From assembly GCA_026004735.1 (NCBI GenBank), contig BPJS01000001.1, positions 2,108,001 through 2,172,000 of the forward strand: a stretch of 64,000 nucleotides of DNA, written 5' to 3'. A program made the translations under genes and the position numbers. Positions within the stretch are counted from its first letter, which is position 1; every line of letters starts with the position of its first letter. Shown in pieces: positions 48,014 to 59,032 of this stretch. The notes under the pieces are model-generated. The model was not told where the DNA came from and made no database searches. It worked only from the letters and a program-made list of their open reading frames with translations. This DNA is from Isosphaeraceae bacterium. GTDB lineage: Bacteria; Planctomycetota; Planctomycetia; Isosphaerales; Isosphaeraceae.

Positions 48014-51000
48014 TCAGGAGCTGTGTTTGTGGGGCTGGCTGGGGGTGGTCGAGCGATTTTCGGGGCCGTCGAGTTCGCCGGAGGAGTAAGTCGGGGCCGA
48101 CGGAGCCGGGCGGGCTTGGATTCTCCCAGATAGCTGGCTCTGGATCGAGTCGAGCCAGGCCTGGTCGGGCAGTTGGTAAGGCCGGAACTTTTCGAGGGTC
48201 CCGCGATCCTCGCTCGCGAACAGGGCGCGATGGGGTCCGAGGCGATTGGCCAGCGGCGTGTCGAGGAGGTTGGTTGAGTCGTTGGCCGACATCTGGAACA
48301 GGACCCGCATTTCAAACTCACGCAGGCTTGAGCGGTCGAAGACGCGTTGCAGGTTGTTCAGCGTATCGGACCAGATGATCAGGTGGATCCCAAGAGCCGG
48401 ACCCTCGCGGAGCAGCTCGGCGAGTTGCTCGCCTCGGTGTGTCTGGTCGGCGCGGCCGAAGGAGAAGTCATCGCTGCGGCGGAGTTGGCGGAAGCGAGAG
48501 GCGTCGAAGAGGAAGACGAACCACGAGTTGCGGACCAGGGGGTGGGATTGGCGGCGGGCCAGCTCGTCGGCCAGTTGCTGGAGGATCGAGTCGACCTGGC
48601 TGGGGCCTCCGAGCAGGCTGGGATGGGGCACACACGCAGCGATTCTACGCAGACGAGCTTCGTCGGGGTGGTCTTCAGGCGTGGCATCGAGGATGGCGAA
48701 TGAGGCCGCCTCGGGAGGGAGTTGGGCGGCCAGGCTGAGCAAGGCGGCGGCGAAGATGCCGCGTGCGGCATCGGCATCCTGGCCGACCAGCAAGAGGTTG
48801 TGGCCGCCCTGGCGGCGAAAGACGGCCGCGGTTGGATCCTTGATCGCCACGGCTTCGCCGAGCCAGGCCAGCGGGGCGCGGGGAGGCGGTTCGGGCCAGG
48901 TGTCCGCGTCCAGCAGGGCGCGGAGCGAGGCCAGGCGACGGATGTCGGAAGGAACGTTGCCCTCGAAGACGATCCGGGGCCGGGCCGGACGAGCGCCCTG
49001 CGCGGCGTCGAACTGGCGGAGCCGCTCTAGATATTCAGCGCGCTGGGACTCGGGGAGCCAGACGACCTGGAAGACGTGATTCCCCTCGACCATGCCGTTG
49101 GCGTCGTTGTAGATCGCCTCGCCGGGACGTGTCAGCAGCCGGGCCGCGGCGTTTTCCTCGCTCAGAATCAGGTGGGCATCGGATTCACTGCATTGCAGAG
49201 CGATCCGGACTCCCATCTGGCCCAGCGTGCTCCGCGCCAGGCTGAACGCGCCGCCCAGCGTCTGCGAGCCGAGCAAGACGTGGATTCCGAAGGCGCGGCC
49301 TTGGCGGACCAGTCGATCAAGCAGCAAGGCCGCTTCCTGAGCCAGCCGATCGTCGTCAACGAAAAATTCCTGAAACTCATCAACGATCAGGAGGACGCGG
49401 GGAAGGGGGGGAGCCTGGGGAATCGCACGATACGCAGCCAGGTCCGGCACATTGTGCGCGCGAAACAGCTCCCCGCGACGTCGCAGCTCTTCGTCGAGCC
49501 GCTGGAGCACGCTGACCCCGAACTCCCGCTCGCTCTCGATGGCGATCACACGCGCGTGGGGTAGTTCGTGCTCGGCGTAGGTTTTGAACTCGACGCCTTT
49601 CTTGAAGTCGATCAAGTAGAACTCGAGCTGGTCGGGTCCGTAGATCAGGGCGGCGTTGGTAATCAGGGCGTGCAGCAGAGTCGATTTCCCCGACCCGGTG
49701 CGGCCCGCGATGAGGGCGTGTTGCGAGGTGCCGCGGCCGAGCTGAAGGGCCTGGAGCCTGGTAGCGCCCGAGCGGCCCAGCGGGACGTCAATCCCCTCGC
49801 GGGTATCGCCGGTCCACCACCGTTCGGTGGGCGGCGCGACGACGTCGAAGGGAACCTCGACCCGGCCCGCGCGGCGCGCAGCCTCGCCGAAGCGATGCAG
49901 AATCGGCGTCAGCCGCTCGTCGGGCGGCGGCCGGTCCGGTGTAAACGCAAAGGACGCAAACCGCGGATGATCCCAGACGAACCGAGATTCGTCCGCACGC
50001 CAGACCAGCCGCTGCGCCTGCTGGGACAACTCGGCGACCGAGATCGTCCGCGGTAACGGCTGGTCCTCGTCAACCAGAATCAGCAGATGAACCCCGCACC
50101 GCGAACCACCTGCGGCGATGCTGGCCAGCCGCTGGGCCGACGACTCGTGAAATCCCGCGGGAAAGTGGGAGATGACTAGAACACGGTAAGGCTCGGCCAC
50201 GACTCCCGCGTCGCGGTTGTATTCCTCCAGGTTCGCGTATTCATTTCTCAAGAACTGCTGAATCACATGCTCCATGTGCAGCGAGAGATCCGCCAGCCGC
50301 TGTTCGATCTGTTGCGGCTCAGTCCAGATCCGGCTGGTGACCAGCAGCTCGGAGTAGTCGGCCAGGTGCATGAAGGCCGCGAAGTGACGCCCCAGACCGA
50401 CCGGGTCGATCAGCGTAAACCGAACCTTGCCCGGCGGCAGGCTGGTCAGCCAACGCAGCATCGTACCCTGGAGCACCGCCACTCCCTCTTCCTTGCCGGC
50501 TCCCCCGGCACGGACGACCAGCGATGCGCGGTCGGGAAAGGTCAGCAGGGCCGGTAGCTCCCAGCCACCGCGAGCCGTTTCCTGGAGCCGCTCATCCCGG
50601 GAGATTCCGTGAGGGACCAAACGCGGGTCGATCCGCACGGTTCCAAACCGGATGGCCGGCGGAACATCTTCGGGCAACGGAGGGACTTCAGCCGGCTGCT
50701 CCCAGTCCCAGGAGCGGGCCTGGACCTCGGCGACGACCCGAGCGGCCAGTGTGTCGAGCCGCTCCAGACCGCCGGTCCAGGTGGCGACCAGTTCGTCCCA
50801 GTCCTGCCCGCGTCGGGCTTCAGCCTCGGCGTGGTGGGTGCGGAGCTGATGCTCGATGCGCTGGGTTTCTTGCTCGAACCAGCGCTGCAACTGATCTTTT
50901 CGTTGGGTCAGTTCGCGGGTCCGCTGCTCCGTGGCCTGGGCCTTGACCTGTTCAGCCCGCTCGATCCGCTGGCGCGCGGATGCTTCGAGTTCCGCGAGGC

Positions 51001-52030
51001 CCGCGTCGCGGGCTGCCTCGGCGGCCTGCACCCGCTGTCGGACTCTTTCCTCCAACTCGCGGATTTCCTGGTCTCGTTTCTGGCGTAGCCGTTCGATTCG
51101 TTCCTGGCTGATTCGCCGGTTCTCGGCGATCGACGCCGTCAATTGGCCGCGGAGCTGGATCCGATCCCGGTCGAGCTGGGGGATGGCCGCCCGGAGAGCC
51201 CGACGCGCCCGCCCGCGCAGGAGTATAGCGGCCAGAGCAACCACTCCGAGCGCGCCTCCCACCGCGGCGCCGGCACCCGCCGGCCAGCCCAGAAACCAGA
51301 GGGCCGGTCCGATCAAGACAACGAGCGCCGCAGCCCCGAGCACGGCCAGCCCCGACCAGTCCACGATTTTGGGCAACCGCATCGCCTCGATGGCCAGCCA
51401 ACGTTGCTGGGCCACTGCCAACGCGGCGCGGAGATCCTCCAAGTCGGCTGGTCCGGGTGGAGGAACCGGTTCCGGCTCCGGAAATGGGCCAAAACCTCGA
51501 AGCCGGTCCCGCTGGGCCAACGCCGCCGCGTCGAGCGCGTCGAGTTCCTCAAGCTCTGTCACCAATGCCTTATCGAGGCTCTCGAACCGCTCGCGTTCGG
51601 CCCGCTCCGACGATTCGAAGAGTGTTTCGGCCTCCCAACGTCCCTGTTCGCGTGCCGAGCGGGCCTCCTCGATCGCCTGCTGAGTTTGACGAATCAGTTC
51701 CTCTTTGCGTGCCTTGAGGTCGGCCTGCGCTGTCTGAATCGCCTGCGAGCAGGCCGCGGTCAGGTCGCGGAGCGACGCTTCGGCGAATTGCTCGATCGCG
51801 ACCTGTTCGGACTGGAATCGCGACCGCGCGGCAGCCATCTGTTGGCGATACTCGGCTTCCGCCGCACGGATTCTGCTGGCGTAGCGTCGATCTCGTTCCT
51901 GCTCGAGCCGGTCCCGTTCGGCAGCAAGCCGCGAGAATTCCGGCGGTATCTGCTCGGGGAGTTGATACCAGGCCGGGTCGCGGTCGCGGGGGGGTGCGGT
52001 CGGTTCGACTGGCTTGGTGTCCTGGTTCAT
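48014..52030 (-). CDS. ESX/T7SS-like FtsK/EccC ATPase with coiled-coil N-terminus
   Basis: A 1338-residue putative secretion ATPase. Residues 30-175 and 285-410 are long charged coiled coils flanking two transmembrane segments (224-272). Then three FtsK/SpoIIIE-like modules: the first (about 470-740) lacks a clear Walker A; the second has Walker A GRTGSGKS (776-783) and Walker B LLIVDEF (880-886); the third (about 1060-1310) retains LLLVGQDADAAR in place of Walker A. One active and two degenerate ATPase modules resemble EccC/EssC, whose N-terminus however has other domains. Its ATG directly abuts the stop (TAG) of the small helical gene, and a WXG100-like gene starts the operon. Confidence 0.85.
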   Translation of the reverse strand: MNQDTKPVEPTAPPRDRDPAWYQLPEQIPPEFSRLAAERDRLEQERDRRYASRIRAAEAEYRQQMAAARSRFQSEQVAIEQFAEASLRDLTAACSQAIQTAQADLKARKEELIRQTQQAIEEARSAREQGRWEAETLFESSERAERERFESLDKALVTELEELDALDAAALAQRDRLRGFGPFPEPEPVPPPGPADLEDLRAALAVAQQRWLAIEAMRLPKIVDWSGLAVLGAAALVVLIGPALWFLGWPAGAGAAVGGALGVVALAAILLRGRARRALRAAIPQLDRDRIQLRGQLTASIAENRRISQERIERLRQKRDQEIRELEERVRQRVQAAEAARDAGLAELEASARQRIERAEQVKAQATEQRTRELTQRKDQLQRWFEQETQRIEHQLRTHHAEAEARRGQDWDELVATWTGGLERLDTLAARVVAEVQARSWDWEQPAEVPPLPEDVPPAIRFGTVRIDPRLVPHGISRDERLQETARGGWELPALLTFPDRASLVVRAGGAGKEEGVAVLQGTMLRWLTSLPPGKVRFTLIDPVGLGRHFAAFMHLADYSELLVTSRIWTEPQQIEQRLADLSLHMEHVIQQFLRNEYANLEEYNRDAGVVAEPYRVLVISHFPAGFHESSAQRLASIAAGGSRCGVHLLILVDEDQPLPRTISVAELSQQAQRLVWRADESRFVWDHPRFASFAFTPDRPPPDERLTPILHRFGEAARRAGRVEVPFDVVAPPTERWWTGDTREGIDVPLGRSGATRLQALQLGRGTSQHALIAGRTGSGKSTLLHALITNAALIYGPDQLEFYLIDFKKGVEFKTYAEHELPHARVIAIESEREFGVSVLQRLDEELRRRGELFRAHNVPDLAAYRAIPQAPPLPRVLLIVDEFQEFFVDDDRLAQEAALLLDRLVRQGRAFGIHVLLGSQTLGGAFSLARSTLGQMGVRIALQCSESDAHLILSEENAAARLLTRPGEAIYNDANGMVEGNHVFQVVWLPESQRAEYLERLRQFDAAQGARPARPRIVFEGNVPSDIRRLASLRALLDADTWPEPPPRAPLAWLGEAVAIKDPTAAVFRRQGGHNLLLVGQDADAARGIFAAALLSLAAQLPPEAASFAILDATPEDHPDEARLRRIAACVPHPSLLGGPSQVDSILQQLADELARRQSHPLVRNSWFVFLFDASRFRQLRRSDDFSFGRADQTHRGEQLAELLREGPALGIHLIIWSDTLNNLQRVFDRSSLREFEMRVLFQMSANDSTNLLDTPLANRLGPHRALFASEDRGTLEKFRPYQLPDQAWLDSIQSQLSGRIQARPAPSAPTYSSGELDGPENRSTTPSQPHKHSS

Positions 52031-52261
52031 CTACTCCCCGTCGCTCGTGTCGAAGCAATCGCGGTGGATGCGCGCCAGCAGGTCGGCCAGTTCATCCATC
52101 GCCCGCAGAGCGGTTTGGGCCTTCTCAAGCAGGGGCGTCAACTCGTGCTCTTGGATATCTTGCCGCACTTGGTCGCGCCATTCCGACTCGGTACCGTCCC
52201 ACACCTCGCGCAGCGTCTTGATCGCGTGCTTCAGTTTGGGAATCCCAGCGCCGAAATACAT
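52031..52261 (-). CDS. Small helical protein of the ESX-like operon
   Basis: A 76-residue acidic helical protein, MYFGAGIPKLKHAIKTLREVW at the start, then WDGTESEWRDQV and a second helix rich in Leu and Ala ending CFDTSDGE. The length, the helix-turn-helix layout and the W-x3-6-W-R-D pattern are like a second WXG-type partner, though the WXG sequence itself is not exact. GAGGG precedes the ATG; the gene begins 11 bases after the previous stop and ends one base before the ATPase ATG. Confidence 0.72.
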   Translation of the reverse strand: MYFGAGIPKLKHAIKTLREVWDGTESEWRDQVRQDIQEHELTPLLEKAQTALRAMDELADLLARIHRDCFDTSDGE

Positions 52262-52271
52262 GGACCAGCCC

Positions 52272-52838
52272 TCAGGACTCCGGCGTCGGGGTACTCTTGG
52301 TCGAGGCAGCGGGCGGGGGCGATTGGAGTGGCTGCGCAAGCTCGGCTGCATACTGCTCCAGCGCGGCGATCATCCGATCCAGCCGAGCGAGCGTGTGCCG
52401 AACGTCGCTCTCCAATGCATCCGAGAGCGGCTGGACGGCCGCGCGATACTGCTGGATGGCGTGCTGAAGCGGACCGACCCACTTCCGGACCCGCTCGAGC
52501 ATCTTCTCGGCCCGCTCGAGCCGGCGGGTCATGTCACGCACGTGCTCGCGAGGTTCGCTCAAGTTGGCCTCATTACCAAACATTTGTGAGGTCCGCTTGC
52601 GAAACAGCTCCGACTTGGCCTGCGCGAGCTGATCGCGGCACCGGTGGATCTCGGCTTGCCAGTACATCCTCCGTTCCTGGGTCAGCCAGCTCACGATCCG
52701 GGTGATTTCCATCTCCGTCGCGGCCAGCGCGTTCCGCACGTCCTCAGCAAAACGCCCGTAAGCCGCGTGCACATCCCGCAGCGGTTGGATCGCTCGAACG
52801 TCCACGGGGAGAGACATGGGCGCCAGTCCCGTCGTCAA
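52272..52838 (-). CDS. Helical/coiled-coil protein of the ESX-like operon
   Basis: A 188-residue mostly helical protein with heptads (EMEITRIVSWLTQERRMYWQ, RRLERAEKMLERVRKWV, DALESDVRHTLARLDRMIAALEQYAAEL) and a short Pro/Ser/Thr tail. Start ATG 52838 overlaps the WXG100 gene stop (ATGA); an in-frame ATG at 52817 is also possible. No known family recognised; by place it is a substrate, chaperone or adaptor of the ATPase. Confidence 0.75.
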   Translation of the reverse strand: MTTGLAPMSLPVDVRAIQPLRDVHAAYGRFAEDVRNALAATEMEITRIVSWLTQERRMYWQAEIHRCRDQLAQAKSELFRKRTSQMFGNEANLSEPREHVRDMTRRLERAEKMLERVRKWVGPLQHAIQQYRAAVQPLSDALESDVRHTLARLDRMIAALEQYAAELAQPLQSPPPAASTKSTPTPES

Positions 52839-53107
52839 CGCTGGCGGAGATACTCTTCAGCGCGTTCCGCCTTGCGAATCAGAAACGGAACATACTGCTC
52901 GGAGATCTCCAGAAATTTTCCGATCGTGGCCAGCGTTTTCTCGAACTCTTCGACAAATTTGTCATGCTCACGATCCCGCCACGACTGCGAGAGCGCACCC
53001 AGTTGACTCTGGAGACCGCCGCTCATCGTTTGAAGCTGGGCGTTGAACGACTTGAGCACCGATGCGAACCGCCGCAGCTCGGCCGGATCGACGTGGGCAT
53101 GCGACAT
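52835..53107 (-). CDS. WXG100-like protein (ESX substrate candidate)
   Basis: A 90-residue helical-hairpin protein. Two helices (about 8-40 and 48-85) are joined by a turn with SWRDREHDKFVEEFEKT, where W-R-D stands for the W-x-G of classical WXG100 proteins. Length, lack of Cys and position before an FtsK/EccC-like ATPase support a T7SS target. The RBS GAGAGGG (53116-53122) lies eight bases before the ATG; an earlier in-frame start is rejected as it adds a basic tail. Confidence 0.8.
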   Translation of the reverse strand: MSHAHVDPAELRRFASVLKSFNAQLQTMSGGLQSQLGALSQSWRDREHDKFVEEFEKTLATIGKFLEISEQYVPFLIRKAERAEEYLRQR

Positions 53108-53351: not shown

Positions 53352-55322
53352 TCAGCCAGGTGCCGCCTGAGGATCGGAACTCGGCGGGGGTGCCACCGTT
53401 TTGAACTGTTCGAGGGACGAAGGATTCTCCAGGTTAGACAGATCGCCGAGTGGAAGGTTGAGCAGCCGTGCCCGGATCGCACGGCGAAGAATCTTGGCAT
53501 TCCGAGTTCGGGGCAATTCGCTGACGAACCGTACCTCTTCGGGAGCGAACGAGCGGCCGAGGGAGTCGCGGACGCGCTGGCGGATCGACTCGCCGGTTGT
53601 CTCGTCGGCAACCACTCCCGGCCGCGGCACAACGAAGCACCAGACCGCCTCCCCCTTGACCGGGTGAGGCATGCCGATGGCTGCGCACTCCGCGGCGGCC
53701 CCGTGGTCGACGACCACCGACTCGATCTCAGCGGGGCCGATCCGCTTGCCGGCCACGTTGAGCGTGTCGTCGCTCCGGCCGTGGAGGTACCAAAGGCCAT
53801 CCTCGTCGATCGACGCCCAGTCGCCGTGGGTCCAGAGGCCGTCGAACCGGCTCCAATACGTCTGTAGGTAGCGATCGGGGTCGTTCCATAGTCCGCGGGT
53901 CATCCCGGGCCAGGGCTGTCGGCACACCAACTCGCCGACTGCGCCTCGGAGTGACCGACCCGAGGGGTCGACGACATCGACCGCCATCCCCAGGGCCGGT
54001 CCGCCCAGGGTGCAGGGCCGCAAGGGCGTGATCGGCAGGGGCGAGAGGAAGCAGGCGCCGACTTCGGTCCCGCCTGACAGGTTGATGATCGGGCAGCGGC
54101 CGCCCCCCACGGTCTCCAAATACCACCGCCACGGACCGGGATTCCAAGGCTCGCCGGTCGACGCCAGGATTCGCAGCCCCGAAAGATCATGGCTCCGAAC
54201 CGGTTCTTCGCCATGGCGCATGGCGGCCCGGACGAAGGTGGGGGACAGCCCGAGAATCGTCACCCCGTGCCGTTCCACCAGCGACCAGATCCGGTCCGGG
54301 CCGGGGGATTCCGCCGCACCGTCGTATAAGACGAGCGTACCGCCGGCAGCCAGGGCCCCAACCACCGCCCACGGCCCCATGATCCAGCCGAGGTCGGTCA
54401 TCCAGTAGAGCCGATCGGCGGCCGTCAGATCGGTCTGAAACGCGGCTTCTTGGGCGACCTTGACCAGGAAGCCCCCGTGCACGTGGACGGCACCCTTGGG
54501 CCGGCCGGTCGTGCCGGACGTATAGGCGATCAGAAACGGATCCTCGGCATCCATCTCGATCGATTCGGGCCGGCTGCCTGCGTCCTGCCGCAACGAATCC
54601 CAGTCGTGGTCGCGCCCGGCGACCCAGGGTATTTCGTTCCGAATCCGCCGTACGACCACGACGTGGCGCACACTCGGACAATGGGCCAGGGCGGCGTCGG
54701 CGGTCGCCTTGATCGGGACGATCTGACCCTTGCGGCGGACTCCGTCGGCCGTCACCAGCGCCACGGCCTGGCAATCATTCAACCGCGCCGCCACGGCCTC
54801 GCCCCCAAACCCCGAGAAAATCGGAACCGCCACCGCTCCCAGCCGGGCTACCGCCAGAAACGCGGCGACTGCCTCCGCGTGAAGCGGGAGGAAGAGGCCG
54901 ACTCGGTCGCCGCGACTGACCCCCAAGTCCGCAAGTGCTGCCGTCCAGCAGCCCATCTCTTCATGGAGCTGCGCGTAGGTCCATGAAGTCACTGAACCAT
55001 CCTCGCTCTCCGCGACCAACGCGGGCCGCTCGGCCGAGGCCGGCAGATGCCGATCGACCAGACTTTCCGTCAGGTTCAACCGCCCCCCAACGAACCAGCA
55101 CGTCCACGGCGCTCCGGCCGAATCGTCGCGCACGGTGTGGTACGGCCTGGTGAAGACCAGGCCCAGTTCTCGCACCACCGCATCCCAAAACCAGCACGGC
55201 TCCTGAATCGATCGCTCGATCAACTCCTGCCGGCCGGGCAGGTCATGCCGTCGCATGAATCGGGCGACGTTGCTGCGCTCGAGCTGTTCGCTGCTGGGCG
55301 TCCAGGCGTAGGGTTCGCTCAT
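53352..55322 (-). CDS. Acyl-CoA synthetase (acetoacetyl-/acetyl-CoA-like)
   Basis: A 656-residue adenylating enzyme. DPFLIAYTSGTTGRPKGAVHVHG, LRILASTGEPWNPGPW, the family's TEVGACFLSP, GLWTHGDWASIDEDGLWYLHGRSDDTLNVAGKRIGPAEIE and a lysine near the end (RTRNAKILRR) are ANL motifs; the N-terminal part resembles acetyl/acetoacetyl-CoA synthetases. As last gene of the homogentisate operon it may activate the acetoacetate released by the fumarylacetoacetase step. ATG 55322 overlaps the flavin-reductase stop (ATGA). Confidence 0.85.
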   Translation of the reverse strand: MSEPYAWTPSSEQLERSNVARFMRRHDLPGRQELIERSIQEPCWFWDAVVRELGLVFTRPYHTVRDDSAGAPWTCWFVGGRLNLTESLVDRHLPASAERPALVAESEDGSVTSWTYAQLHEEMGCWTAALADLGVSRGDRVGLFLPLHAEAVAAFLAVARLGAVAVPIFSGFGGEAVAARLNDCQAVALVTADGVRRKGQIVPIKATADAALAHCPSVRHVVVVRRIRNEIPWVAGRDHDWDSLRQDAGSRPESIEMDAEDPFLIAYTSGTTGRPKGAVHVHGGFLVKVAQEAAFQTDLTAADRLYWMTDLGWIMGPWAVVGALAAGGTLVLYDGAAESPGPDRIWSLVERHGVTILGLSPTFVRAAMRHGEEPVRSHDLSGLRILASTGEPWNPGPWRWYLETVGGGRCPIINLSGGTEVGACFLSPLPITPLRPCTLGGPALGMAVDVVDPSGRSLRGAVGELVCRQPWPGMTRGLWNDPDRYLQTYWSRFDGLWTHGDWASIDEDGLWYLHGRSDDTLNVAGKRIGPAEIESVVVDHGAAAECAAIGMPHPVKGEAVWCFVVPRPGVVADETTGESIRQRVRDSLGRSFAPEEVRFVSELPRTRNAKILRRAIRARLLNLPLGDLSNLENPSSLEQFKTVAPPPSSDPQAAPG

Positions 55323-55978
55323 TGTCGCGGATCCCCAGCGGGACCGGCCGGAGGTTGCGAGTCGGGGGGACGCTCCGGTCTTCGAAGTGTGAACAGATCG
55401 GTCGATCGGCAGTAAAAATCGCCGCCGAGGCGCGCGACGGCCCGGAGCTTGCGGGGATCGACCGATCCGGCTTGATCGAGCACCGCGTCGTCGACATGGA
55501 TCAAAACGACCCGGCCGATCACCAAGTTGGCCGCGATCGGCCCCTCCCCGTACGAGCGGATCTCGACGACCTGGCACTCCAAGTGGGCTGGCGAGGCCGC
55601 CACCCGTGGCGGGCGGACCCGCTCGGACGGCGCCAGGGCCAGCCCGAGCCGATCCGCCTCGTTCACCCCCCGCGGATAATCCGCCGAACTGGCATTGACC
55701 GAATCGACCAGATCCTCGACGGCCAGATTGATAACAAACTCGCCCGTTGACCGGACATTTTCGAGCGTGTCCTTGGCCGTGCCATCGCGACGCAGCGTTG
55801 GCGAAAAGACGACAATCGGTGGGTTGGCTCCAAACACATTGAAGAAGCTGAACGGTGCGAGGTTGATCCGACCTTCCGGGTCAATGCTCGTCACCCAGGC
55901 GATCGGCCGTGGAACGACCAGCTCGATCAACGCCCGGTAGACCCGCACCACCTCCGCCTGACCGGGATCGAGAATCAT
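55319..55978 (-). CDS. Flavin reductase / FMN-binding split-barrel protein
   Basis: A 219-residue member of the flavin reductase-like family. VPRPIAWVTSIDPEGRINLAPFSFFN and VFSPTLRRDGTAKDTLENVRSTGEFVINL are its hallmarks. It may supply reduced flavin or act on a pathway intermediate. It is inserted between hmgA (12-bp gap) and an acyl-CoA synthetase (ATGA overlap), so co-expressed with tyrosine catabolism. No flavin-dependent monooxygenase partner is present in the operon. The last 25 residues are Pro/Arg rich. Confidence 0.85.
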   Translation of the reverse strand: MILDPGQAEVVRVYRALIELVVPRPIAWVTSIDPEGRINLAPFSFFNVFGANPPIVVFSPTLRRDGTAKDTLENVRSTGEFVINLAVEDLVDSVNASSADYPRGVNEADRLGLALAPSERVRPPRVAASPAHLECQVVEIRSYGEGPIAANLVIGRVVLIHVDDAVLDQAGSVDPRKLRAVARLGGDFYCRSTDLFTLRRPERPPDSQPPAGPAGDPRQ

Positions 55979-55990
55979 GGATCAACGGCC

Positions 55991-57184
55991 TCAATCGAGC
56001 CAAGAGCGGGGATACTCAGGGTCGTCCAGGTCCAGGGCCGCGCTGGTCAGTTGCAGCGGCGCCTCGGTGTCGATCATCACGGCCAGTTCATCGGTTCGAA
56101 CCGCGTGCCGGCTGGCCGCGATCGTTCCCGGATGCGGGCCGTGGGGAATGCCCCGCGGATGAAGCGTAACCGAGGCCGCCTCGACCCCGCGCCGGCTGCC
56201 AAATTGCCCGGCTACGTAATAAAGGACTTCGTCGGCCTGAACGTTCGAGTGCGCGTAGGGCACCTTGATCGCCTCGGGATGGGTATCGAGCAGACGCGGC
56301 GCAAAGGTGCAGACCACGAAACCATCAGATTCAAACGTCTGATGCACCGGCGGCGGCTGGTGCACCGTGCCCGTGATCGGTTCAAAGTCCAACGCATGGA
56401 AGGCGTACGGGTAGACCACTCCGTCCCACCCGACGACGTCAAACGGATCGCTCGCCAGGACGTACCGCGTCCGCCGCCATCCGTCCTGGATCAGGACACT
56501 GGTCTCTTCCTCGCGGTCGACCGGCTCAACCCAGACCGGACCGCGGAGGTCCCGTTCCGAATAAGGCGCGCCCAGCCGGAGCTGACCATCGGGATTGAGG
56601 TACCGCCGCGGAACCGCGATCGTGCCTCGGCCCTCAACGATCAGCAGATCCGCCTCGTCGATCTTCTCAAAGTCGAGCCGATACGTCGTGCAGCGAGGAA
56701 TCACCAAGTAGTCGAACGGGCCAAACGCGACGACACCGAGCGGGCAGGAGAGGATGCCTCTGCCAGCATGAACGAAGATCAGTTCGTCGGCATCCGCGTG
56801 ACGAAACAGCTCTGACTGCGGGCTTTCCGGACGACAGCGCGAAATCACGACGTCGCGATTGAGCAGCAACGCCACCCGTCCGGTGATGGGATCGCCCCAG
56901 CGCGCCATCGATCCGGTTCGCAGGTGGTGATGCCGCAACACCGTATCGTCGGCCAGCGGTGCTTCGACCCACCCGGCGGCCTCGATCCGTCGAACCCGGG
57001 TCGGCGGTCGCAGATGATAGAGAATGCTGTAGCCGCGGCTGAAACCGGCCAGCGTGATAACCTCTTCGTAGTAAATCCCCTCGCCTCGATGGCCGCTGTC
57101 GGTGCGGCGGTGGACTACGTGCCGTTTGGGGGGAACTCGACCGAGTCGGAGATAGGGCGGCATAAGATCGGCCCCGGCGACCAT
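55991..57184 (-). CDS. hmgA: Homogentisate 1,2-dioxygenase
   Basis: A 397-residue non-haem iron enzyme that opens homogentisate to maleylacetoacetate. GEGIYYEEVITLAGFSRGYSILYHLRPPT at the front, then VGWDGVVYPYAFHALDFEPITGTVHQPPPVHQTFESDGFVVCTFAPRLLDTHP, YAHSNVQADEVLYYVAGQF and HPRGIPHGPHPG form the cupin metal-binding part (His, Glu, His). ATG 57184 lies two bases after the previous stop; ATG 57163 is an alternative. Confidence 0.92.
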   Translation of the reverse strand: MVAGADLMPPYLRLGRVPPKRHVVHRRTDSGHRGEGIYYEEVITLAGFSRGYSILYHLRPPTRVRRIEAAGWVEAPLADDTVLRHHHLRTGSMARWGDPITGRVALLLNRDVVISRCRPESPQSELFRHADADELIFVHAGRGILSCPLGVVAFGPFDYLVIPRCTTYRLDFEKIDEADLLIVEGRGTIAVPRRYLNPDGQLRLGAPYSERDLRGPVWVEPVDREEETSVLIQDGWRRTRYVLASDPFDVVGWDGVVYPYAFHALDFEPITGTVHQPPPVHQTFESDGFVVCTFAPRLLDTHPEAIKVPYAHSNVQADEVLYYVAGQFGSRRGVEAASVTLHPRGIPHGPHPGTIAASRHAVRTDELAVMIDTEAPLQLTSAALDLDDPEYPRSWLD

Positions 57185-57186
57185 TC

Positions 57187-57900
57187 TTAGCGGTGCGCGA
57201 CAATTCGATTGGTCAGACGCCCCAGTCGTTCCACCTCCAGTTCGACGCGATCTCCCGGCCTTAACCAGCCGCCGACGCTCTCAGGCGTCAGCTCAAGGAT
57301 GCAACCGCTCCCGACGGTTCCCGATCCGAGCACATCCCCGGGCCGAAGCACCGAATCGCGGCTGGCGTGGGCCAGCAACTGGGGCCAGGTCCAATACATC
57401 GTAGCCGCATTGCCCCGGCTGAGCTCGCGGCCGTTGACGCGGGCAGTCATCCACAGATCGAGCCGCCCCCCCACGTACCGATCCCTGAGCTTCTCAAACG
57501 GCACCAGTGTCGGTCCCAGGCTGGTTGCGAAATCCTTGCCCTTGGACGGCCCGAGCCCCACTTTCATCTCCAGGGCTTGCAAATCCCGCGCGCTCCAGTC
57601 ATTCATGATCGTGAAGCCGGCGACGACTTCCATCGCCCGATCATCGGCGGGCAGATCGCGGCACTCCTGGCCGATGACGCAGGCCAGCTCCAACTCGTAG
57701 TCCAAGGCCGACGAACCCCGCGGCGCGCAGACCTCCGCACCATCGCCGACGACCGTTGCCGGATTACCGAAGTAGAACACCGGAATCTGATACCACTCGG
57801 GCACCATATCCAGACCGCGTTGCGCCCGGCAGCGGCGGACGTGCTCCTCGAAGGCGTAAAAATCGCGGAGACTGGCGACCGGTGGCAGCGGTCCGGACAT
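57187..57900 (-). CDS. Fumarylacetoacetate hydrolase family protein
   Basis: A 237-residue FAH-family enzyme. ALDYELELACVIGQ, GFTIMNDWSARDLQ and KGKDFATSLGPTLV carry the metal and catalytic residues; GDVLGSGTVGSGCILELTP is the C-terminal loop. In tyrosine catabolism it should cleave fumarylacetoacetate to fumarate and acetoacetate. No maleylacetoacetate isomerase gene is adjacent. Start at 57900 leaves a 25-bp gap after hpd; an earlier ATG (57969) would overlap hpd by 44 bp and is rejected. Confidence 0.85.
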   Translation of the reverse strand: MSGPLPPVASLRDFYAFEEHVRRCRAQRGLDMVPEWYQIPVFYFGNPATVVGDGAEVCAPRGSSALDYELELACVIGQECRDLPADDRAMEVVAGFTIMNDWSARDLQALEMKVGLGPSKGKDFATSLGPTLVPFEKLRDRYVGGRLDLWMTARVNGRELSRGNAATMYWTWPQLLAHASRDSVLRPGDVLGSGTVGSGCILELTPESVGGWLRPGDRVELEVERLGRLTNRIVAHR

Positions 57901-57925
57901 GGTCGGGAGACCCTCTCGGCTCGTT

Positions 57926-59032
57926 TCAGAGCGTTCCCCGGCGGGCCTGCTCGCGCTCGATGGCTTCAAAGAGCGCCTTGAAATTCCCCTTGCCGAAACT
58001 TTGGGCTCCCCGCCGCTGGATGATCTCGAAGAACAGGGTCGGCCGATCCTCGACCGGCTTCGTGAAAATCTGGAGCAGATAGCCTTCCTCGTCCCGATCC
58101 ACCAGAATCCCCAGCTCCCGCAACGCTCCGAGATCCTCGCGGATCGGGCCGACTCGAGCGGTCAGGTCGTCGTAGTAAGCCGGCGGGACGGTCAAGAACG
58201 AGACGTCGTTGGCACGCATCGCCCGGACGCTCGCCACGATATCGCGGGTCGCCATGGCGACATGCTGGACCCCGGGTCCGTGGTGAAACTGGAGGTATTC
58301 GGCGATCTGAGACCGCCGCCGGCCCGTGGCCGGTTCATTGATCGGCAGCTTGATCCGACGCCGCCCATCGGCCACCACCCGCGACATCAGCGCCGAGTAT
58401 TCGGTGCTAATGTCCTTGTCATCAAACGACGCAAACAGACTGAATCCCAAGACCTGCTCGTGCCAGCGGACCCAATGCTCCATCTGCCCTTGCTCGACGT
58501 TGGCCACGATATGGTCAATGACTCGCAGCCCGACCGGACGGAACGACTCAGGCGCGTACCGACCCGGTTCGATCGGCCGAAATCCCGGCGCAAAGACACC
58601 GCGATACTCCGTGCGGTCCACAAACCCATACCGCACATCTCCGTAAGCCATGATCTCGGCGTACGCGTAGCTGCCGTGCTCATCCTCACGCACCGACGGC
58701 TCAACCACACCGATCGCGCCCCGGGCAACCGCCGCCTCATAGGCCAGCGGGACACTCTGAACCTCAAAGGCAATCGTTCGTACCGAATCCCCGTGGGCTA
58801 CCAGCCGCGCATTGTCCGGGTGCTCCGCCGTCAGCGGTGAGGTCACCACGAATGTGATCTCGCCTTGTCGCAGAACATAACCCGCCGTATCCCGGACCTG
58901 CGTCTCCAGGCCCATGTAACCAACCACGTCGAAGCCGAACGCGTTCCGGTAAAAGAACGCCGACTGTCGGGCGTTGCCCACAACGAGATGGACGTGGTCG
59001 ATGCCTACCAGAGGAACGTCCGGTGTCGGCAT
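57926..59032 (-). CDS. hpd: 4-hydroxyphenylpyruvate dioxygenase
   Basis: A 368-residue iron enzyme converting 4-hydroxyphenylpyruvate to homogentisate. DHVHLVVGNARQSAFFYRNAFGF starts the N-terminal barrel; DHIVANVEQG, the Fe site HHGPGVQHVAM and the C-terminal FFEIIQRRGAQSFGKGNFKALFEAIEREQ are diagnostic, with GNF and the closing helix. It is the first gene of a five-gene minus-strand operon for tyrosine/phenylalanine catabolism. Confidence 0.94.
   Translation of the reverse strand: MPTPDVPLVGIDHVHLVVGNARQSAFFYRNAFGFDVVGYMGLETQVRDTAGYVLRQGEITFVVTSPLTAEHPDNARLVAHGDSVRTIAFEVQSVPLAYEAAVARGAIGVVEPSVREDEHGSYAYAEIMAYGDVRYGFVDRTEYRGVFAPGFRPIEPGRYAPESFRPVGLRVIDHIVANVEQGQMEHWVRWHEQVLGFSLFASFDDKDISTEYSALMSRVVADGRRRIKLPINEPATGRRRSQIAEYLQFHHGPGVQHVAMATRDIVASVRAMRANDVSFLTVPPAYYDDLTARVGPIREDLGALRELGILVDRDEEGYLLQIFTKPVEDRPTLFFEIIQRRGAQSFGKGNFKALFEAIEREQARRGTL

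What the first reader, a model, noticed from the sequence alone, without database searches (positions are those of the whole stretch)
48014..53107. Compact ESX/type-VII-secretion-like operon in a planctomycete
Four minus-strand genes are tightly joined: WXG100-like (90 aa), coiled-coil protein (188 aa, ATGA overlap), small helical protein (76 aa, 11-bp gap), and an FtsK/EccC-like ATPase (1338 aa, directly abutting). This is seen in sequence. WXG100 with a three-module FtsK-type ATPase is the minimal hallmark of type VII secretion. Absent nearby: EccB, EccD, EccE, mycosin, EsaA/EssA/EssB, EsxA paralogues. A secretion system in an envelope with an outer membrane needing only one motor would be new. 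Inference: either a minimal ESX-like exporter or another use of the motor.
Basis: partly seen in the sequence, partly recalled or inferred. Interest (0 to 1): 0.85.

Follow-up and report, generated by a model that had tools for sequence, protein, structure and literature searches.

The report
Planctomycete type VII-like export motor
Four linked genes encode two small hairpin proteins, a long helical rod and a membrane-anchored motor related to type VII secretion ATPases; the set is kept in many planctomycetes, even where the genes are scattered, and probably moves its own helical proteins across the inner membrane, but secretion has not been shown.

Summary
In detail: a tight minus-strand operon, wxg (90 aa), cc (181 aa), small (76 aa), ATPase (1338 aa). 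wxg passes Pfam WXG100, has W-R-D in place of W-x-G, and its nearest solved relative is H. pylori HP0062. small is probably a second WXG-like hairpin. The ATPase folds like EccC, only the middle of three modules keeps Walker motifs, and a conserved membrane hairpin interrupts its coiled coil. cc is modelled as a two-helix rod without a toxin domain.

The kind is known: a 2012 footnote names planctomycetes, and a 2024 paper describes related operons with two WXG100 proteins and a coiled-coil nuclease. Plasmid relatives lack the hairpin; some carry toxin and immunity genes.

New here: all four genes in 53 of 81 loci; wxg and ATPase in exactly the same 19 of 149 phylum genomes, even where wxg, cc and ATPase lie at three separate loci; the membrane anchor; no effector domain. 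This points to a maintained chromosomal system. EssB is absent; the EccB test is inconclusive; the one YukD is unlinked and does not track the unit. Export is inferred, not shown. New variant of a known kind.

The parts
52835..53107 (-). wxg: WXG100-family hairpin protein, 90 aa, W-R-D at the turn, C-terminus EEYLRQR
   Evidence: PF06013 30.8 bits over cut-off 27.3; profile hits HP0062 3fx7 E 4.5e-10 and EsxB 4e-8; WRD in 53 of 53 homologues
52272..52817 (-). cc: 181-aa antiparallel two-helix rod (helices 7-79 and 87-161), low-confidence tail
   Evidence: AlphaFold2 mean pLDDT 90; found in 66 of 81 loci; no family over its cut-off, no solved relative by sequence
52031..52261 (-). small: 76-aa probable second WXG-like hairpin with W-x-D
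   Evidence: profile-profile match to wxg at the Trp turn, prob 74%, E 2.8e-5 for that one comparison; W-x-D in 52 of 52 homologues; no fold was predicted
48014..52030 (-). EccC/EssC-like FtsK ATPase, 1338 aa
   Evidence: PF01580 E 4.5e-34; best NCBIfam EccCa 112.7 bits, below its cut-off of 509; model of residues 464-1338 matches EccC 4nh0 E 3e-28, FtsK only 6e-11
51203..51370 (-). transmembrane hairpin of the ATPase (residues 221-276) inside the coiled coil
   Evidence: hydropathy, present in the homologues sampled; no such hairpin in five plasmid relatives by the same measure
49052..49777 (-). middle (only active) ATPase module (about residues 752-993): AGRTGSGKST and LLIVDEFQEFF
   Evidence: P-loop and Walker B residues invariant or nearly so; modules 1 and 3 lack a Walker A motif

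Best explanation
It is a chromosomal, membrane-anchored planctomycete branch of the 'WXG100 plus middle-active EssC-like ATPase' family. Shown: the four genes, their families, the predicted ATPase fold and its single intact active site, the membrane hairpin (by hydropathy), and conserved co-occurrence. Inferred: the ATPase sits in the inner membrane by its hairpin, oligomerises as FtsK-family motors do, and its one active module drives export of the wxg/small hairpins, with the cc rod as adaptor or as a substrate that in some mobile relatives carries a toxin domain. The planctomycete version has lost, or never had, the toxin, so it more likely serves an envelope or surface function than killing. 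How anything would cross the outer membrane is unknown.
For: EccC/EssC relation by sequence and fold. WXG100 relation and HP0062/EsxB as nearest structures. Same gene order in 53 of 81 loci. In 149 phylum genomes wxg and the long-match ATPase occur in exactly the same 19 (15 genera), cc in 18 of them (Fisher p about 2e-24, not corrected for relatedness), and in G024, G087, G105 and G137 they sit at three separate loci, so function rather than transfer as a block keeps them together. A Helicobacter plasmid relative has, between its WXG-like gene and its ATPase, an HNH nuclease and a SUKH immunity protein. Long proteins beside the Rhodococcus and Deinococcus ATPases resemble cc (0 of 300 shuffles score as high).
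Against: No secretion data. No EssB (positive control rings); no EccB hit (control did not ring, so inconclusive); no other gene is conserved beside the unit. The WXG protein has no YxxxD/E signal in any of 53 homologues. The Caballeronia and Helicobacter proteins in the cc position do not match cc convincingly (2 of 300 and 272 of 300 shuffles score as high), and coiled-coil composition can mislead in such comparisons.
Confidence: 0.55

Rival explanations
1. It is an FtsK-like DNA-handling machine: the motor acts on DNA and the hairpins and the rod organise it, for chromosome or envelope-linked DNA work.
For: FtsK/SpoIIIE superfamily; the cc rod is nearest in fold to SMC coiled coils, at insignificant E-values; some mobile relatives lie near helicase genes.
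Against: EccC and EssC match better than FtsK in sequence and fold; the genome has a separate canonical FtsK at C1:853843; WXG100 partners are typical of protein export.
Confidence: 0.12
2. It is a conflict or defence module that acts inside the cell or delivers effectors, as proposed for the CoCoNuT/TerY-associated versions, with effectors encoded elsewhere.
For: Mobile relatives with nuclease, immunity, TerD, VWA, CARF, kinase and phosphatase genes; a protein kinase gene near the unit in 12 loci, mostly upstream and divergent (no background rate was measured).
Against: One cc and one wxg per positive genome; no orphan toxin-fused copy was seen at E<=1e-3 (the only extra matches are a weak cc match in G100, not followed up, and a weak second wxg match beside the unit in G110); no toxin or immunity gene recurs in the flanks; PADLOC matches are confined to FtsK-type or coiled-coil stretches.
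Confidence: 0.2
3. It is a complete minimal ESX exporter: one motor suffices for secretion across the whole envelope.
For: No other T7SS gene is linked; wxg and ATPase track each other exactly.
Against: Only inner-membrane anchoring is evident; nothing here accounts for the outer membrane; missing-component tests were few and partly inconclusive.
Confidence: 0.13

Closest known systems
Solo WXG plus YueA-like three-module ATPase, 'mobile versions of T7SS' (Zhang et al. 2012, PMC3482391, Table 1 footnote 6)
   Same: WXG protein with a distinct ATPase whose middle FtsK/HerA domain alone is active; planctomycetes named
   Different: The footnote gives no gene set, membrane anchor or distribution; here the unit is chromosomal, single copy and not evidently mobile
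EssC-like ATPase with two WXG100 proteins in Type III-A CoCoNuT extensions (PMC11090510)
   Same: Three ATPase domains with only the central active, long N-terminal coiled coil, two WXG100 proteins (one without WxG), a coiled-coil protein
   Different: There the coiled coil is fused to a D-ExK nuclease, a DNA-mimic-like protein follows, and the ATPase has no transmembrane helices; here a hairpin is conserved and there is no nuclease
H. pylori HP0062/HP0066 WXG100 cluster (PMC4978471, PMC3397514)
   Same: HP0062 is the nearest solved structure, with the same WRD turn, and is clustered with an FtsK/SpoIIIE gene
   Different: The H. pylori WXG100 cluster includes an HNH-family nuclease; no toxin gene is found here
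T7SSa/T7SSb (EccC/EssC, EsxA/EsxB)
   Same: WXG100 hairpin plus membrane-bound FtsK-like ATPase
   Different: No EssB, no linked YukD or EccD, a coiled coil around the membrane hairpin, only one intact ATPase module

Membership tests
Type VII secretion system (T7SSa/b) | WXG100-family protein | tested here: met
   PF06013 over its cut-off; but TIGR03930 at 27.8 bits is below its cut-off of 44.85
Type VII secretion system (T7SSa/b) | EccC/EssC equivalog ATPase | tested here: not met
   112.7, 96.5 and 94 bits against cut-offs of 509, 347 and 778; related, but not a member by these models
Type VII secretion system (T7SSa/b) | Membrane-bound ATPase | tested here: met
   conserved hydrophobic hairpin at residues 221-276; prediction only
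Type VII secretion system (T7SSa/b) | EssB/YukC | tested here: not met
   no match in the whole genome; B. subtilis control rings
Type VII secretion system (T7SSa/b) | EccB and EccD membrane components | tested here: inconclusive
   EccB none, but no control rang; EccD only a 17.6-bit ubiquitin-domain match, no control rang
Type VII secretion system (T7SSa/b) | YukD/EsaB ubiquitin-like component | tested here: not met
   one YukD in the genome, unlinked, in an E2-E1-JAB operon; of the 19 genomes with wxg only 4 have a YukD match
Type VII secretion system (T7SSa/b) | YxxxD/E secretion signal (T7SSa) | tested here: not met
   0 of 53 wxg homologues have it in the last 20 residues; cc and small were not tested for it
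Type VII secretion system (T7SSa/b) | Secretion of the WXG protein | not testable with these tools
   needs an experiment
Solo WXG plus middle-active EssC-like ATPase family | Three FtsK modules, only the middle active | tested here: met
   alignment of 77 homologues; fold
Solo WXG plus middle-active EssC-like ATPase family | Solo WXG gene with the ATPase | tested here: met
Solo WXG plus middle-active EssC-like ATPase family | Mobile element | tested here: not met
   chromosomal, single copy, scattered loci in relatives; no mobility gene recurs in the flanks
CoCoNuT-associated WXG/ATPase operon | Coiled coil fused to a nuclease; ATPase without transmembrane helices | tested here: not met
   cc has no Pfam domain over its cut-off; hairpin present

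The most novel reading that the evidence does not exclude
A maintained exporter of a diderm phylum: a T7SS-related, membrane-anchored motor with one active ATPase module that exports two WXG-like hairpins and a rod to the periplasm or surface, domesticated from (or ancestral to) toxin-delivery modules.
Probability: 0.3. Interest if true: 0.75.

Novelty: new variant of a known kind. Interest (0 to 1): 0.5.

Why it matters
It would place a maintained type VII-like motor in an outer-membrane phylum that includes genetically tractable members, where the literature found here holds only a table footnote, and would make testable whether WXG100/ATPase pairs can export on their own and what they do when no toxin is attached.

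Tried and rejected
YukD/E2/E1/JAB operon as partner: rejected as obligatory (E2 in 6 of 19; YukD in 4 of 19). Conserved flanking genes: none except a fairly frequent kinase, for which no background rate was measured. Defence-family membership: PADLOC hits are to FtsK-type or coiled-coil stretches only. Orphan toxin-fused cc or wxg proteins: none seen. Similarity of cc to the Caballeronia and Helicobacter proteins in its position: not convincing (2 of 300 and 272 of 300 shuffles score as high). cc fold search: only generic coiled coils, all E > 0.04. A first phylum search failed on the machine and was repeated with fewer genomes.

Full report
The window encodes, on the minus strand, wxg (53107-52835), cc (52817-52272), small (52261-52031) and an ATPase (52030-48014). 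Upstream lies an acetyl-CoA synthetase-like gene and downstream a gene with planctomycete cytochrome C, DUF1549 and DUF1553 domains, both on the same strand, 244 and 114 bp away.

Identity. wxg passes the Pfam WXG100 cut-off (30.8 against 27.3 bits), not the stricter TIGR03930 (27.8 against 44.85). A profile of its family finds H. pylori HP0062 (3fx7, E 4.5e-10) and EsxB. HP0062 is a crystallised helical hairpin with the same WRD turn, in a cluster with an FtsK/SpoIIIE gene (PMC3397514). All 53 homologues have WRD and none has YxxxD/E in the last 20 residues. small aligns with wxg at the Trp turn (prob 74%, E 2.8e-5 for that one comparison), and 52 of 52 homologues have W-x-D; its fold was not predicted. 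cc is modelled as two antiparallel helices of about 73 and 75 residues (pLDDT 90), without solved relatives by sequence or significant fold matches.

ATPase. It has an FtsK_SpoIIIE domain and is closer to EccC/EssC than to FtsK. The model of residues 464-1338 (mean pLDDT 82, pTM 0.65) matches EccC 4nh0 at E 3e-28 over 893 alignment columns, TM-score 0.38-0.39, against 6e-11 for FtsK; the low TM-score means that the relative placement of the modules is uncertain. In an alignment of 77 homologues only the middle module keeps Walker A and B, and a hydrophobic hairpin near residues 221-276 is present in the homologues sampled. Five plasmid relatives show no such hairpin by the same measure.

Distribution. 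The search for related loci reported 476 relatives and kept the best 80, nearly all named as planctomycetes. All four genes are together in 53 of 81 loci; most others are truncated contigs, a wxg-less clade in which the named members are mostly Isosphaeraceae, or loci with a lone ATPase. In 149 phylum genomes the ATPase (as long, strong matches) and wxg occur in the same 19, cc in 18 of these plus one weak match elsewhere. In four same-class genomes wxg, cc and ATPase lie at three separate places, with small beside cc in G024 and G137. The genomes are related, so the p-value overstates the case, but 15 genera and scattered loci argue for joint function.

Relatives and literature. Plasmids of Caballeronia, Helicobacter, Rhodococcus and Deinococcus carry relatives of the ATPase; WXG-like small proteins lie beside it in Caballeronia, Helicobacter, Rhodococcus and, more weakly, Deinococcus. 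The Helicobacter one has an HNH nuclease and a SUKH immunity protein. cc resembles the long Rhodococcus and Deinococcus proteins (0 of 300 shuffles score as high), but not convincingly those of Caballeronia or Helicobacter. The kind was noted in 2012 in planctomycetes (PMC3482391), in H. pylori in 2016 (PMC4978471) and in CoCoNuT operons in 2024 (PMC11090510).

Missing parts. EssB: none, with a valid control. EccB: none, without a valid control. YukD: one, unlinked, in a YukD-E2-E1-JAB operon, and YukD and E2 do not track the unit across the phylum.

Structure jobs.

Conclusion. A membrane-anchored planctomycete variant, without an effector domain, of a known WXG100/ATPase family; probably an exporter of its own helical proteins. 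Secretion, topology and substrates are inferred.

Noticed in passing
own genome G000:C1:4199452-4203031 (L098:6453-10032): A four-gene operon of a YukD ubiquitin-like protein (54 bits), a ubiquitin-conjugating E2, a ThiF E1 and a JAB peptidase: a likely bacterial ubiquitin-like conjugation system, unlinked to the unit.
   Followed up: partly
L107 (MT836827.1): A human-fecal 'phage' record carries a ThiF gene, an FtsK relative of the ATPase and a 349-aa protein with a WXG-like N-terminus and a metallopeptidase-like motif, near a recombinase-like gene.
   Followed up: partly
L159 (G107:C1:7877000-7890000): Here wxg is followed by a separate 119-aa protein with two hydrophobic stretches and then a shorter ATPase, as if the membrane hairpin were split off.
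   Followed up: no
L045, L063, L077: A clade with a lone ATPase gene next to a GNAT-like acetyltransferase gene, without wxg, cc or small detected at the locus.
   Followed up: no
window 55319-59032: Flavin reductase, FAA hydrolase and glyoxalase/dioxygenase-superfamily genes: looks like an aromatic (homogentisate-type) catabolic cluster; the 397-aa gene in it has no Pfam match at E<=1e-10.
   Followed up: partly
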